A stretch of 32,394 nucleotides of DNA from Clostridia bacterium (GTDB taxonomy: Bacteria > Bacillota > Peptococcia > Peptococcales > BICA1-8), in NCBI GenBank assembly GCA_012720075.1, contig JAAXZE010000123.1, positions 1 to 32,394 of the forward strand, read 5' to 3'. The translations under genes were made by a program, and so were the position numbers. Positions 3,858 through 32,394 of this stretch are shown piece by piece (positions within the stretch are counted from its first letter, which is position 1; every line of letters starts with the position of its first letter). The notes under the pieces were generated by a model, which saw only the letters and a program-made list of their open reading frames with translations, ran no database searches and was not told where the DNA came from.

Positions 3858-4010
3858 CCGTAAACCTGAGAGATTTTACCCCTTGGGTGCTCAAAAAGAG
3901 CTCTCCAGAGTCCCGTCAGAATGCGGTACTGGACCTGAGAGTTTCCAATTGCTTGGCAAGGGCAATCGTTGCTCCTTCGGTGTCCATTTAAGGACTCTCC
4001 CACATCATTC
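3814..4010 (-). ncRNA. Tandem glycine riboswitch with terminator, leader of gcv operon
   Basis: Reading the minus strand, a first aptamer contains GGGAGAGTCC, then CACCGAAGGAGCAA and AACTCTCAGGTCCAGTACCG. A short linker leads to a second aptamer with GACTCTGGAGAG, CACCCAAGGGGT and ATCTCTCAGGTTTACGGACAG. This is the two-aptamer arrangement and motif set of the gcvT glycine riboswitches of Bacillus-type bacteria. A 13-bp terminator stem with a U-tract follows directly. By family knowledge it is an ON switch: glycine binding prevents termination and lets gcvT-H-PA-PB be transcribed. The aptamer boundaries are approximate. Confidence 0.93.
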
Positions 4011-4091
4011 AACCGGTTAATATATAATTAAAATTTAAAGTACTAGTTATTTTTGCTAGAGTATATTCGTCTTCTGTTTAAAAATTACTGC

Positions 4092-7612: not shown

Positions 7613-7646
7613 AAAAAAACCCTCAATCCCAAAAGGGACGAGAGTT
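7613..7646 (-). terminator. T-box terminator
   Basis: Minus strand: ACTCTCGTCCC pairs with GGGATTGAGGGT around TTTT with a single bulged base, then a run of seven T. The 5' arm follows the T-box core, so it competes with the antiterminator in the usual way. Confidence 0.9.
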
Positions 7647-7852
7647 TTCCCGCGGTACCAACCTAATAATGGGTAAAAACTAACCCATCACTCAAAGGTC
7701 TTTAACGCAGACCAAACGAGTAGAACTACTAAATTTCGAACTACCAACTCCCGGATGATTTTCCTTTAATTTAAGATGCCCGGCTCCCACCTTCCCAGGT
7801 TCGCTGTAACCTTATAAATTAAAGTACTCTTCCGTTCATCGTTTTTTTATAT
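7613..7852 (-). ncRNA. T-box leader controlling ileS
   Basis: The minus strand carries the conserved T-box core AGGTTGGTACCGCGG (7665-7651) followed by a terminator. Its TGGT (7660-7657) is complementary to an ACCA tRNA 3' end, as expected for tRNA-Ile. Upstream is a structured Stem I region beginning GATGAACGGAAGAG, with an AGGTGGGAGCC segment resembling the distal loop. ATC at 7759-7757 is the likely isoleucine specifier; a second ATC follows directly. Uncharged tRNA-Ile should stabilise the antiterminator and switch ileS on. Confidence 0.93.
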
Positions 7853-27425: not shown

Positions 27426-28199
27426 CTACATATGCTTCCTCATATGATTAAGGGCCGCTTTTTCCAAACGGCTGACTTGAGCCTGAGAAATTCCTATTTC
27501 TTCAGCAACCTCCATCTGGGTTTTTCCATCAAAAAATCTCAGAGTTAAAATCAATCGTTCTCTTTCATTTAGTTTACGTAAAGCCTCTTTTACCGCGATA
27601 CTTTCCAGCCAATTTATATCGGAATTTTTCTCGTCACCGACTTGATCCATAACAAAAATGGGATCCCCACCATCATGGTATATTGGTTCGAATAAAGATA
27701 CGGGCTCTTGGATGGCGTCAAGGGCAAATACTATTTCTTCCCTTGGTAATTTTAATTCTTCAGCAATTTCTGTGATAGTAGGCTCTTTAGAATGTTTATT
27801 GACGAGGGAATCCCGAACCTGAAGAGCTTTATAGGCAATATCCCGTAAAGAGCGGCTTACTCTTATAGGATTATTATCCCTTAGATATCTTCTTATTTCA
27901 CCTATAATCATGGGAACGGCATAGGTTGAAAACTTGACATTTTGACTTAAATCAAAATTATCTATGGCTTTCATTAAACCTATGCAACCAACCTGAAATA
28001 AATCATCAACATATTCGCCCCGGTTGGTAAATCTCTGGATAACGCTTAATACCAACCGCAAATTTCCTTGTATTAGTTGTTCTCTGGCTTCTTCGTCACC
28101 AGCCTGAAGTTTTTCAAATAACTCCCGCATTTTTGCGTTATTTAATACCGGCAACTTTGCTGTATCTACTCCACAAATTTCAACTTTATTAATTATCAA
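27426..28199 (-). CDS. sigG: RNA polymerase sigma-G factor, late forespore
   Basis: 257 residues. N-terminus NKVEICGVDTAKLPVLNN is diagnostic of sigma-G. Region 2 is FQVGCIGLMKAIDNFDLS and KFSTYAVPMIIGEIRRYL; region 4 is GKTQMEVAEEIGISQAQVSRLEKAAL. Intact to the end, unlike the neighbouring sigE. TTG start at 28199, 7 bases after GGGGGGT. It lies 168 bases after the sigE end, past the sigE terminator, so it needs its own promoter; I found no convincing one. Confidence 0.96.
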   Translation of the reverse strand: MIINKVEICGVDTAKLPVLNNAKMRELFEKLQAGDEEAREQLIQGNLRLVLSVIQRFTNRGEYVDDLFQVGCIGLMKAIDNFDLSQNVKFSTYAVPMIIGEIRRYLRDNNPIRVSRSLRDIAYKALQVRDSLVNKHSKEPTITEIAEELKLPREEIVFALDAIQEPVSLFEPIYHDGGDPIFVMDQVGDEKNSDINWLESIAVKEALRKLNERERLILTLRFFDGKTQMEVAEEIGISQAQVSRLEKAALNHMRKHM

Positions 28200-28341
28200 C
28201 CAAAATACCCCCCGACTTCAGAGCTTATTTTAGTTATTGCCTGGGAGAAAAGGGTTTATGCGGGTTAATTTGGGAAATGCTAAAGTATTTGCATTCAGAG
28301 ATTTGTTAATTTTCAATAACAAAAGCAACTTTTTCAACATT

Positions 28342-28368
28342 AAAAAAACTGAGCCGGGCTCAGTTTTT
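28342..28368 (-). terminator. sigE terminator
   Basis: Minus strand AAAAACTGAGC (28368-28358) pairs with GCTCAGTTTTT (28354-28344) around CCG. It starts at the original sigE TGA at 28370-28368, so the terminator remains placed for the full-length gene. Confidence 0.88.
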
Positions 28369-29102
28369 CATTCCAAACGTTGAATCTCTTTTTTTAGCCG
28401 TTTAATAATTCTTTTTTCTAAACGGGAAATATACGATTGGGATATTCCCAAGTAATCGGCAACTTCCTTCTGGGTTTTTTCCTGGCCTCCTTTTAGACCG
28501 AATCTAAGCTCCATTATCTTCTTCTACCGGGGATTTAATTTTTTCATAGCGGCATGGAGAAGTTTTTTATCTATTTCTTCTTCTAATGATTTATATATAA
28601 TATCATTGTCGGTTCCCAATACATCGGAAAGCAATAGTTCATTACCGTCCCAATCTATATTGAGGGGTTCGTCAAAACTGATTTCCGACTTGGTTTTATT
28701 GCTTCGCCTTAAATGCATGAGAATTTCATTCTCAATGCATCTTGAGGCATAAGTTGCCAGTTTTATTCGTTTAGCCGGGTCAAAAGTGTTAACGGCTTTA
28801 ATTAAACCAATGGTCCCGATGGATACTAAATCCTCAATTCCTACTCCCGTGTTCTCAAATTTCCTGGCTATGTAGACTACCAGCCTTAAATTTCTTTCGA
28901 TAAGAATACTTTTTACATTATTATCTCCCGCTTCTAACCGATCTAATAATACTCCTTCTTCATCCTGAGTCAGCGGAGGAGGCAGGGCCTCACTGCTGCC
29001 TACATAAAAAATATCCTCAGAAAGTCCTAACTTGATTAATAGCTTTACCAACACCGCTTTAAAGCTAATTTTTGTCTTAATTACCTGACCTTCCGGAAAC
29101 AA
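28368..29102 (-). pseudogene. sigE: RNA polymerase sigma-E factor gene interrupted by an in-frame TAG
   Basis: Sporulation mother-cell sigma factor. From TTG 29102 (AGGAGGTG upstream) 192 residues are read: pro-region, [52 protein letters not shown], and [21 protein letters not shown] follows at 28526-28524, after LNPR. The same frame continues for 51 clean sense codons ([34 protein letters not shown]) to TGA at 28368. Bacillus SigE has Glu at this position (NEREKQIMELRFG), so GAG to TAG explains it. The truncated product lacks region 4 and should not recognise -35 elements. With the TAG bridged the length is 244, normal. No frameshift and no other stop. Confidence 0.92.
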
Positions 29103-29119
29103 TTTTGCCCACCTCCTGG

Positions 29120-30043
29120 TTAATTTTCAGTCAACATATCAGGGTGAACTAAGGCCTGATATGTACCTTCGGAACAAAGTTTTCGGTAATAAATTCCCAA
29201 TACAACTCTTATGTTGCAGTAGGTTTTCTGCCCATCCTGAATTAGGACCTTATCGTGTTTAATTCCCAATAACATTCCATTTTGGTTACCCAAAGATGAA
29301 AAAGGTATTAATCGTATCCTGGTAATCCATTTAGGGTCCTGAAGGATGGCAATTTGCTCATCTAACGAAGGCGGTTCTTTTTTGTTGAGCATAGCTGTTA
29401 ATTGGGGAGGCAAAATGCCTGACAGTTTAGTATGTTCAATAACCATTACCGGTTCTTTTGTAATAGGGTCATTTAGCTGATTGCCGGTATCAACAAGGGC
29501 ATCGGCTTCAATAACCTGACCAAATATCTCCAGATATGCTTTCACCAGCCATGGACCTTGTTGCAAGGTGCGCCGGAAATAACTTGCTCCCCATAAGCCT
29601 AAAATTAAAGCAATTATTAATCCTACCAGCAACCAGGCAGTTTTAAAGTTTATTACATTTACTGCGATGCCGTTCCAGGTTTCCAGGATAAACAAGCTGT
29701 CATCAAAAAGATACATGGACCCTAAAACCGCCCCGCCCATGATAAAAGATACTAAATAAAAATAGGCGGCAGATTTTAAAAACCGCCCAATATTTTTAAA
29801 ACCAAAGGCAGCCCCTACCATCAGCAAAGAACAAACTACTTTTGCCGGGAAAGTAGCGGTAAAGGAAAATTGAGGCAGAAAAATAAGCACGGCATAAGAG
29901 GCGACTATTAAAGCACCCAGACAAAGACCCCTTAAAGTTGTTGCAAGTTTTCCAAACTTGCTGGCCGCCCACAGTACAAAAAAGTCCATAATAAAATTGA
30001 TTAAAAAAACCATATCGATGTAGATATTTGTGTTGGGCGACAC
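29120..30043 (-). CDS. spoIIGA: Sporulation sigma-E factor processing peptidase SpoIIGA
   Basis: 307 residues: about five N-terminal membrane segments ([62 protein letters not shown]) and a cytosolic aspartic-protease domain with ALVDTGNQL (Asp185). It cleaves the pro-sequence of sigma-E after the SpoIIR signal. GTG start at 30043, 5 bases after GGGGGTG. It lies 17 bases upstream of sigE, the usual spoIIG order. The gene is intact even though its substrate gene is interrupted. Confidence 0.93.
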
Positions 30044-30087
30044 TTAGACACCCCCGTAGACAACAACTCAAATTGAATTCCTCTTTC

Positions 30088-30120
30088 ATTATAACTTAAT
30101 CCTTTTCAGAAATATGTCAT
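30088..30120 (-). promoter_or_regulatory. Candidate spoIIG-type promoter with long spacer
   Basis: Minus strand ATGACA (30120-30115), 21 bases, TATAAT (30093-30088). The Bacillus spoIIG promoter also has a consensus-like -35 and -10 held too far apart (22 bases) and depends on Spo0A. TTTGCGAA on the plus strand at 30123-30130 is one base short of a 0A box and is weak support. Confidence 0.4.
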
Positions 30121-30162
30121 TATTTGCGAATATTAACATTTCTATAAATACATTTAACGCAT

Positions 30163-30182
30163 TTTCCCGGCTTGTTTCCCGG
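30163..30182. repeat. Two direct copies of TTTCCCGG
   Basis: TTTCCCGG at 30163-30170 and 30175-30182, 12-base period, in the divergent region between spoIIGA and the CofE-like gene. The outer bases also form ATTTTCC/GGAAAAT. Could be a regulator site; no other support. Confidence 0.3.
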
Positions 30183-30309
30183 AAAATTACTTGTTAAATA
30201 ATATAATGATTAAAACTATTCACAACTATTACCAAAGTCTGGCTAAATTAAAGTAAAAGTAGTAAAATCTAATGTGTTGGGTATTGCAGTGTAGAGGAGG
30301 ATGTTAAAT

Positions 30310-31488
30310 ATGGTGAGGACGGTAGGAACAACCATCAGAGGAATTCGAGCTCCCATTGTAAAACAGGGAGATGATTTGATTACTGTTGTTGTTGACTCTT
30401 TAATTCAATCAGCTGCTCAAGAAAAATTTCATTTTAATGACGGAGATGTAATCGGTATAACCGAGTCGCTGGTGGCCAGGGCTCAAGGAAATTACGCAAC
30501 CCTTGAAGATATTGCCGTGGAAATAAACACTAAATTTGACGCCGAGGAAATCGTAGTTCTCTTTCCTATTTTAAGCAGAAACAGGTTTATGCCAATTTTA
30601 CAGGGAATATTAATGAGCGGCAAAAAGGTTTTTCTTTATTTGAATTATCCTGCCGACGAAGTTGGTAATCCCTTACTTGACATAGATATCATTGATGAAA
30701 AGGGTATTAATCCCTATACTGATGTGTTGAGCGAAAAAGAATACAGATTATTATTTGGTTCAAAGATAGTTCACCCTTTTACCGGAATTGATTATGTACA
30801 ACTTTATAGGGATTTGGACATCAACAATAATATGGAAATTTATTTGGCCAATAACCCTACTGCAGCCTTAAAACATGGCAGGCAAATCTTGGTAGCCAAA
30901 ATCCATGAAGGACATCGGACCAAGAAACTGTTAAAAAAAGCCGGAGCAGAAAAAGTTTTAGGCCTTGATGACCTTTTGACCCAATCAGTTAACGGCAGTG
31001 GTTTTAATCCTGAATACGGATTACTAGGTTCCAATAAAGCTACTGACGGTAAAATTAAACTTTTCCCCAGGGATTGTCAAACTTTGGTTAAGAAAATCCA
31101 AGTCAAAATGAAGGAAAAAACCGGGAAGCAGATAGAAGTAATGATTTATGGTGACGGCGCTTTCAAAGATCCCCAAGGAAAGATATGGGAATTGGCCGAT
31201 CCGGTAGTTAGCCCCGGCCATACCGATGGCCTCATCGGAACACCCAACGAAATAAAGCTAAAGTATATAGTTGATTGCGAACTGGAAAAAAATGTTTCTC
31301 CCAAAATCGATGAAATAATAAAAAGAAAAATCCGGGAAAAAGATTCTCATTGCCAATCGCTGGGAACCACACCTCGAAAAATAACGGATCTTTTGGGAAG
31401 TCTATGTGATTTAACCAGCGGAAGAGGCGATAAAGGAACTCCTATCGTTCTTATCCAAGGATATTTCGATAATTACGCGGTAGAGTAG
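30310..31488 (+). CDS. CofE-like protein (coenzyme F420-0:L-glutamate ligase family)
   Basis: 392 residues from ATG 30310, chosen because GAGGAGG lies 9 bases upstream while ATG 30301 abuts it. N-terminal VGTTIRGIRAPIVKQGDDL and DGDVIGITESLVARAQGNY, then a C-terminal MIYGDGAFKDPQGKIWELAD with SPGHTDGLIGTPNEIKLKY, match the F420_ligase family fold. True CofE adds glutamate to coenzyme F420, which most Clostridia do not make, and no other F420 gene is here, so the substrate is probably different. The gene is single, on the opposite strand from its neighbours, with its own terminator. Confidence 0.8.
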   Translation: MVRTVGTTIRGIRAPIVKQGDDLITVVVDSLIQSAAQEKFHFNDGDVIGITESLVARAQGNYATLEDIAVEINTKFDAEEIVVLFPILSRNRFMPILQGILMSGKKVFLYLNYPADEVGNPLLDIDIIDEKGINPYTDVLSEKEYRLLFGSKIVHPFTGIDYVQLYRDLDINNNMEIYLANNPTAALKHGRQILVAKIHEGHRTKKLLKKAGAEKVLGLDDLLTQSVNGSGFNPEYGLLGSNKATDGKIKLFPRDCQTLVKKIQVKMKEKTGKQIEVMIYGDGAFKDPQGKIWELADPVVSPGHTDGLIGTPNEIKLKYIVDCELEKNVSPKIDEIIKRKIREKDSHCQSLGTTPRKITDLLGSLCDLTSGRGDKGTPIVLIQGYFDNYAVE

Positions 31489-31511
31489 CTAATAGGCTAC
31501 TCTTCTTTTTT
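31483..31511 (+). terminator. Terminator of the CofE-like gene
   Basis: GAGTAGC (31483-31489) pairs with GCTACTC (31496-31502), then TTCTTTTTT. The stop codon TAG lies inside the 5' arm. Confidence 0.85.
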
Positions 31512-31578
31512 AACTTACAAAAGTTCTATAAAATTATGCTTCCTACTTTATATTCCCTAAAAAAAAAGATGGATGAAC

Positions 31579-31604
31579 AAAAAAATCCTTGTCCGGAGAC
31601 AAGG
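31579..31604 (-). terminator. Minus-strand terminator without an assigned gene
   Basis: Minus strand CCTTGTC (31604-31598) pairs with GACAAGG (31593-31587) around a 4-base loop, followed by ATTTTTTT. It could end the tatA transcript, an uncharacterised small RNA, or the remnant ORFs upstream on this strand. Confidence 0.75.
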
Positions 31605-31699
31605 CAGCTTGTTGACAAACCATAATTTATTTTCAACGAAAAGCTAGCCCAAACAATTATAAGGAATGAATTCGGTGGCTTCGGGAATTATCAAAACTC

Positions 31700-31804
31700 C
31701 CCGGCACTTAATTGAAAATTTAGTTACATTCATAATTATTCTTTTATTAATATTCATTTTTTATTTTAAAGATACAAAATTGATAATTTCAATTAAGTGC
31801 CGGG
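31700..31804. repeat. 105-bp element bounded by perfect 18-bp inverted repeats
   Basis: CCCGGCACTTAATTGAAA (31700-31717) is repeated in exact inverse orientation at 31787-31804, enclosing 69 very AT-rich bases. No target-site duplication is obvious at the outer edges. A 12-base direct repeat, TTTAGTTACATT, occurs inside the left end (31719-31730) and outside the right end (31822-31833). Candidates are a MITE, an invertible segment, or a large hairpin. The intergenic stretch 31511-31967 otherwise holds only the short ORF at 31789 and the terminator at 31579. Confidence 0.75.
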
Positions 31805-31920
31805 ATAAATCTCATATCCTTTTTAGTTACATTAATTAATAACTTTGTCCACTGTCTGCCTCGTCCTGAGACCAGGGTACATTTATCACCAATAAATAAA
31901 GGTACAGCGGTTTCCGCCAT
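31789..31920 (-). CDS. Possible small ORF running into the inverted-repeat element
   Basis: 43 codons from ATG 31920: begins MAETAVPLFIGDKCTLVSGR and ends DMRFIPALN, the last codons lying in the repeat arm. The composition looks protein-like, but the ribosome binding site (AGGGG) touches the ATG; a TTG at 31947 would extend it. On the far side of the element another frame reads VLIIPEATEFIPYNCLG and then TAG, so this may be the 5' part of a gene broken by the element. Family unknown. It lies 47 bases downstream of tatA. Confidence 0.35.
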   Translation of the reverse strand: MAETAVPLFIGDKCTLVSGRGRQWTKLLINVTKKDMRFIPALN

Positions 31921-31967
31921 ACCCCTAAGCTTTAATAATGGTTTCAATTTATTTTAAACGATACGGT

Positions 31968-32150
31968 TTAGTCGACTTCTTCCTTAACAGTGTCTTTTTT
32001 ATCGGCATTCAGAGCAGTCTTAAACTCCCTAATACCTTTTCCTATTGCCTTACCTACCTCAGGTAGTTTTCCAGGGCCAAAAATTATCAGGGCAAGAACT
32101 AAAATTAAAATTAATTCCGGCATTCCCAAATTAGGCAGTAAACCAAACAA
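31968..32150 (-). CDS. tatA: Sec-independent protein translocase TatA/E
   Basis: 60 residues: membrane helix ([18 protein letters not shown]), hinge [10 protein letters not shown], and amphipathic helix [15 protein letters not shown], the full TatA plan. It forms the pore of the Tat export system. TTG start at 32150, 8 bases after GGAAGGGG; the first in-frame ATG (Met10) would remove part of the N-terminus and lacks a binding site. No tatC is next to it in this window. Confidence 0.9.
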
Positions 32151-32321
32151 AAAAATCGCCCCTTCCTAAAAAAATAAAAAAATCCATAAAACCTTTTTAT
32201 ATTATAACTAATATTTTTTACAAATGCACTAATTTTTTAAAATTTATCTTAATTTTATAAATTGCAAGTTTAAATGCCCACCATATTTTGTAAATTCCCT
32301 GATCAAGCGATATGTAGTTCC

Positions 32322-32377
32322 TGGATGTCAAGGGCGAGTGCTTTTTGCTCGTGTATTTACCCTTGACATCCATACAC
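32322..32377. repeat. Nested inverted repeats at the right edge
   Basis: TGGATGTCAAGGG (32322-32334) and CCCTTGACATCCA (32360-32372) are perfect 13-bp inverted repeats around 25 bases that hold an inner hairpin (CGAG...CTCG). A competing pair, GTGTAT (32351-32356) and ATACAC (32372-32377), shares bases with them. It may belong to a mobile element or to a gene beyond the edge. Confidence 0.7.
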
Positions 32378-32394
32378 AAGTTATCCTGTTGTCA

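What the first reader, a model, noticed from the sequence alone, without database searches (positions are those of the whole stretch)
31700..31804. Perfect 18-bp inverted repeats around a 69-bp AT-rich core
An exact 18-bp match in inverse orientation with no coding content is far beyond chance for this DNA. It lies at the end of a protein-like ORF. The layout fits a MITE, or an invertible DNA segment that could switch a promoter; a weak TTGTAT-N17-AATATT lies inside on the minus strand.
Basis: seen in the sequence. Interest (0 to 1): 0.6.

Follow-up and report, generated by a model that had tools for sequence, protein, structure and literature searches.

The report
Mini-transposon that inserts into terminators
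The 18-bp inverted repeat is the tip of a small, probably non-coding transposon, present in about 50 copies in this bacterium, that inserts at the "stop signals" of genes and usually duplicates the whole stop-signal hairpin, so that one copy is kept beside the insert.

Summary
It is not the whole feature. It is the apical hairpin of a fold-back element at 31605-31858, a copy (shortened by ~79 bp) of a ~333-bp family with about 50 copies.

The family has imperfect 15-bp ends, CAG(C/A)(T/C)TGT(T/C)GACAAA. Copies abut the foot of an intrinsic-terminator-like stem (34 of 45 left flanks; 4.5% of random sites), and the whole hairpin is often duplicated on the far side. The window copy has a decayed pair: CCTTGTCCGGAGACAAGG and CCTCGTCCTGAGACCAGG.

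The same ends, target and hairpin duplication occur in related IS1182-family insertion sequences: 52 of 60 have the duplication, against 9 of 3,540 mismatched pairings. One such IS end is present in this genome; its body is not assembled.

The MITE reading is right. The invertible-switch reading fails: the core has one orientation in 22 of 22 copies, and promoter matches are at chance level. Terminator-targeting IS1182 elements are published; the MITE, whole-hairpin duplication and nested palindromes appear to be a new variant.

The parts
31587..31604 (-). Left copy of the target hairpin, CCTTGTCTCCGGACAAGG on the minus strand followed by ATTTTTTTGT: an intrinsic-terminator-like site that ends exactly where the element begins
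   Evidence: terminator scan; flank table
31605..31858 (.). Whole mini-transposon copy (254 bp; family consensus ~333 bp)
   Evidence: limits of similarity among copies in the genome
31605..31619 (+). Left terminal inverted repeat CAGCTTGTTGACAAA
   Evidence: 68 matches with up to 2 mismatches in the genome against 2 in the reversed control
31844..31858 (-). Right terminal inverted repeat, reads CAGACAGTGGACAAA on the minus strand (family consensus CAGACTGTCGACAAA)
   Evidence: alignment of copies
31700..31717 (+). Left arm of the reported inverted repeat (apical stem of the fold-back)
31718..31786 (.). 69-bp AT-rich loop; same orientation in all testable copies, 72-84 bp between the 12-bp arm cores in other copies
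31787..31804 (-). Right arm of the reported inverted repeat
31804..31805 (.). Junction of an internal deletion of about 79 bp of the right arm, relative to the family consensus
31859..31876 (-). Decayed duplicate of the target hairpin (CCTCGTCCTGAGACCAGG on the plus strand)
   Evidence: left/right flank score 10.5, above the maximum 9.5 of 240 mismatched pairings

Best explanation
The inverted repeat is the innermost long stem of a ~333-bp fold-back MITE mobilised in trans by an IS1182-family transposase. The transposase recognises the imperfect ~15-bp ends and inserts the element at the feet of an intrinsic-terminator palindrome, the two strands being joined on opposite sides of the hairpin. 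Gap repair then duplicates the whole hairpin (about 16-27 bp), so one hairpin keeps its T-run and the neighbouring gene keeps a stop signal. Shown by sequence: the repeat family, its ends, the target choice, the hairpin duplication, and the sharing of ends, target and duplication with IS1182-family elements. Inferred: the strand-joining geometry, mobilisation in trans, and retained termination. The 18-bp repeat itself is a conserved hairpin module in the apical loop, not a recombination site; its own role (folding of the element or of its transcript) is not shown.
For: Multi-copy family in the genome. Consensus with terminal repeats and fold-back. Terminator-like stem of 6 or more pairs abutting the left end in 34 of 45 copies against 4.5% of random places. 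Duplicated hairpin in 9 of 16 two-ended candidates against 0 of 240 mismatched pairings, including the window copy. IS1182-family IS in a same-family genome with an end identical over 17 nt to the MITE's consensus right end. An IS end with the same 15-bp repeat in the window genome, behind terminator hairpins in both places, coding for the last 38 aa of a related transposase. 52 of 60 related IS1182-family insertions duplicate the whole hairpin against 9 of 3,540 mismatched pairings.
Against: The transposase body is missing from this draft assembly, so the partner is known only by one end. Some copies have two different hairpins or no clear hairpin. No sister genome of the same genus was available to show an empty site. 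Transposition itself was not observed.
Confidence: 0.9

Rival explanations
1. An invertible DNA segment: a recombinase flips 31718-31786 between the 18-bp repeats and switches a promoter.
For: Perfect inverted repeats around a 69-bp AT-rich core.
Against: Core orientation is the same in 22 of 22 copies; promoter-like matches are at chance level; the same arms recur in dozens of copies as part of a larger mobile element.
Confidence: 0.02
2. A small mobile gene: the element encodes a ~70-aa hydrophobic peptide (MNSVASGIIKTPRHLIENIVTF...) and the repeat is incidental.
For: An ATG-started frame of 71 codons is open in the consensus, and some indels in the loop compensate each other.
Against: Intact (60 aa or more) in only 5 of 12 full-length copies; mismatch rates at the three codon positions are nearly equal, 0.069, 0.050 and 0.072; no Pfam match.
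Confidence: 0.04
3. The element is a MITE at terminators, but it is moved by a different enzyme than the IS1182-family transposase, the similar ends being an old relic.
For: The inner fold-back module exists in G007 with other ends, so other movers act on related DNA; the IS1182 body is not assembled here.
Against: Ends, target choice and whole-hairpin duplication all agree with the related IS1182-family elements, and an IS end of that type is present in this genome at two terminators.
Confidence: 0.06

Closest known systems
ISCbo5, IS1182 family (PMC3098183)
   Same: IS1182-family element whose insertion sites, all but one, are hairpins at gene ends that probably act as transcription stop signals.
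   Different: Complete IS with transposase; in the passages read, duplication of the whole hairpin is not stated, and no MITE is described.
IS1272 / TnSha1, IS1182 family (PMC4923244, PMC5678879)
   Same: Targets stem-loops, among them RNA-seq-confirmed terminators, without sequence consensus.
   Different: Deletes all or part of the stem-loop and leaves no duplication; here the hairpin is duplicated (the alternative 'pathway b' that PMC5678879 only proposed).
MITEs of ISMac2, IS1182 family (Methanosarcina acetivorans, PMC3852290)
   Same: Non-autonomous miniatures of an IS1182-family element (160-169 bp, 7-14 copies).
   Different: Archaeal host; listed direct repeats of 0 or 4 bp; no terminator targeting in the passages read.
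BOX, RUP and SPRITE repeats of Streptococcus pneumoniae (PMC10969869)
   Same: Small dispersed fold-back repeats of a Bacillota genome; SPRITE contains terminator-like sequences.
   Different: Not reported there as inserting into terminators with duplication of the hairpin; sequences were not compared here.

Membership tests
MITE (miniature inverted-repeat transposable element) | Short, multi-copy, dispersed element | tested here: met
   ~333-bp consensus; 46 matches, and 68 left-end matches against 2 control
MITE (miniature inverted-repeat transposable element) | Terminal inverted repeats | tested here: met
   Imperfect 15-bp ends CAGCTTGTTGACAAA and CAGACTGTCGACAAA
MITE (miniature inverted-repeat transposable element) | No functional transposase gene | tested here: met
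   Longest frame 71-72 codons, no Pfam match, not conserved as coding
MITE (miniature inverted-repeat transposable element) | Target duplication | tested here: met
   Whole hairpin duplicated in 9 of 16 two-ended candidates against 0 of 240
Non-autonomous derivative of an IS1182-family element | Ends shared with an IS1182-family IS | tested here: met
   G003 IS end CAGACTGTCGACAAAGT equals the MITE's consensus right end; relatives have CAGACTGTAGACAAA
Non-autonomous derivative of an IS1182-family element | Autonomous partner in the same genome | tested here: inconclusive
   Two identical IS ends with the last 38 aa of a related transposase; the body is not in the assembly
Non-autonomous derivative of an IS1182-family element | Mobilised by that transposase | not testable with these tools
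   Needs a transposition assay
IS1272-type stem-loop replacement | Target stem-loop deleted, no duplication | tested here: not met
   Hairpin kept and duplicated
Invertible promoter switch | Both orientations of the core | tested here: not met
   22 of 22 copies in one orientation; reads not available
Invertible promoter switch | Promoter inside the core | tested here: not met
   3 matches found, 3.0 expected
REP / RAYT-associated palindrome (considered for the inner 18-bp hairpin) | REP motif and a RAYT (Y1) transposase that moves it | not tested
   The arms recur with 23-24-nt loops in relatives; no RAYT search was made

The most novel reading that the evidence does not exclude
A three-layer element. 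IS1182-type ends that duplicate terminators have captured a fold-back module that also exists with other ends in another family of the same order (G007). The apical loop of that module in turn carries a hairpin module (CCCGGCACTTAATT arms, 23-24-nt loops elsewhere) that occurs in unrelated places in related genomes. Because an insertion keeps a stop signal downstream, the fold-back would be transcribed as a new structured 3' end of the neighbouring gene's mRNA and could act as a mobile 3'-UTR RNA module.
Probability: 0.25. Interest if true: 0.65.

Novelty: new variant of a known kind. Interest (0 to 1): 0.5.

Why it matters
Duplicating the whole terminator hairpin would let a transposon spread to dozens of places at gene ends while leaving a stop signal in place. 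PMC5678879 proposed whole-stem-loop duplication only as a theoretical alternative for IS1272; here it is the dominant outcome in related IS1182-family insertions (52 of 60) and is shared by a high-copy MITE. That makes structure-guided target choice by a DDE transposase directly testable.

Tried and rejected
Invertible switch: core orientation uniform, promoters at chance level. Known structured RNA: no Rfam family matches the element, in the window at gathering score or in member loci at E up to 1. Coding element: frame intact in 5 of 12 copies and no codon-position bias. PF13751 in the own genome: none, because only the last 38 residues of the IS are assembled. Group IIC introns, which also sit behind terminators, were considered from general knowledge and set aside, since this element has inverted ends, a target duplication and related DDE transposases; not tested with intron models. 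Whether the hairpin beside the T-run decays less: clear in the window copy, mixed in others, so not used. Literature searches on IS1182, MITEs and terminators found terminator targeting but no whole-hairpin-duplicating MITE; subscription papers, ISfinder and TnPedia were not searchable.

Full report
CHECK. The 18-bp perfect inverted repeat is real: arms 31700-31717 and 31787-31804, spacing 69. It is the only exact inverted repeat of 14 bp or more with a gap of 100 bp or less in the window; random sequence with the same neighbour frequencies gives 0.015.

THE TRUE UNIT. A 231-bp query from the site gives 46 matches in the 2.64-Mb draft genome. A longer query shows that similarity begins at 31605, well outside the inverted repeat. 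Aligning the copies gives a ~333-bp AT-rich consensus with one large imperfect fold-back (-93.6 kcal/mol, three flanking bases included); the 18-bp arms form its innermost long stem. The left end CAGCTTGTTGACAAA has 68 matches with up to 2 mismatches against 2 for the reversed control, and a diagnostic inner 30-mer has 36. Further copies are shortened internally. I estimate about 50 copies; the exact number is uncertain because many contigs end inside the element. The window copy lacks about 79 bp of the right arm, the junction being at 31804/31805.

TARGET. The left end sits directly behind the 3' side of a stem-loop, and beyond the right end (GACAGTCTG) the same stem-loop appears again, usually with a T-rich tail. 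Example: AAAAACCCCGTAAAGGGGTT | element | AACCCCGTAAAGGGGTTTTTTAA. The hairpin sequence differs from copy to copy, so it is target, not element. In 45 distinct copies 34 have 6 or more Watson-Crick pairs abutting the left end, against 4.5% of random places. In 16 two-ended candidates (a few of them chance matches or the same copy read from its other end) 9 have a left/right duplicate, against 0 of 240 mismatched pairings. In the window, 31587-31604 is a minus-strand terminator-like site (CCTTGTCTCCGGACAAGG, then ATTTTTTTGT) and 31859-31876 is its decayed duplicate (score 10.5; null maximum 9.5).

ENZYME. A same-family genome (G003; the same sequence appears as a Clostridia MAG record, L111) carries a complete IS with ends CAGACTGTCGACAAAGT and CAGATTGTAGACAAAC around a 490-aa transposase (NF033551 IS1182 family, 452.7 bits; PF13751 and PF05598). 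The first end equals the consensus right end of the MITE. In the window genome, contigs C110 and C165 both break off in an identical ~140-bp end, CAGCTTGTAGACAAA..., that encodes the last 38 residues of such a transposase and sits behind a different terminator hairpin in each place. The rest of that IS is not assembled.

GENERALITY. A scan of genome contigs with that transposase returned 80 relatives, nearly all from Bacillota. Among those with both ends well matched and both flanks present (n=60), 52 duplicate the whole terminator hairpin, against 9 of 3,540 mismatched pairings, and 55 have a stem of 6 or more pairs at the left end. Several of the remainder carry two different hairpins, which could reflect recombination between copies or assembly error.

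MECHANISM (inferred). If the transposase joins the two element ends at the 5' feet of the stem-loops formed by a terminator palindrome, gap repair duplicates the whole stem-loop. This is pathway b in the model of PMC5678879, proposed there but not observed for IS1272, which deletes the stem-loop (PMC4923244, PMC5678879). The outcome keeps one complete terminator and so should be nearly neutral for the neighbouring gene. That the MITE uses an IS1182-family enzyme in trans rests on shared ends, target and duplication; it was not tested.

INNER STRUCTURE. The core has the same orientation in 22 of 22 copies, which argues against an inverting switch. In G007, from another family of the same order, fold-back modules align with the MITE from ATTTATTATCA to GATAATAAA but lack both the IS1182-type ends and the apical 18-bp hairpin. 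Hairpins with the same arms (CCCGGCACTTAATT) and 23-24-nt loops occur in other contexts in related genomes, once with a matching change in both arms (CCCGACACTTAATT), apparently inside an RNase P RNA gene (my reading of the sequence, not tested). The element therefore looks modular; whether the modules move separately is open.

NOVELTY. Terminator-targeting IS1182 elements are known (ISCbo5, PMC3098183; IS1272), and MITEs of an IS1182 element are known (ISMac2, PMC3852290). A high-copy MITE with whole-hairpin duplication, and that duplication as the rule in the related IS clade, were not found in the papers searched. I rate it a new variant of a known kind.

Noticed in passing
32258-32394: The window contig ends in a second repeat (TATAAATTGCAAGTTTAAATGCCC...) that begins at the same base in at least five contigs (C79, C127, C53, C159, C75) and also lies at the start of C69, near-identical in all; it contains a hairpin (32309-32334 / 32360-32385). 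It looks like the end of another multi-copy mobile element.
   Followed up: partly
L191-L199 (relatives G001-G004): Free-standing hairpins with CCCGGCACTTAATT-type arms and a loop of constant length (23-24 nt) but variable sequence occur in genomes of the same family, one apparently inside an RNase P RNA gene (L194).
   Followed up: partly
L217-L221 (G007): Fold-back modules homologous to the MITE interior, with other ends (GGTAATTTATTATC...GATAATAAATTACC), one in a cluster of partial repeats (L217).
   Followed up: partly
L090 (G000 C57): A MITE right end (TGTCGACAGTCTG), a terminator hairpin (AAGGGGCTTTCGCCCCT) and another MITE left end follow each other directly: apparently two insertions at the same terminator.
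   Followed up: no
3914-4012 and 7631-7848: A glycine riboswitch and a T-box leader on the minus strand (Rfam matches).
   Followed up: no
27426-32150: Neighbouring genes: two sigma-70-type factors and SpoIIGA (a sporulation cluster), an F420-0:gamma-glutamyl ligase-like gene (30301-31488, +) and a TatA-like gene (31968-32150, -).
   Followed up: partly
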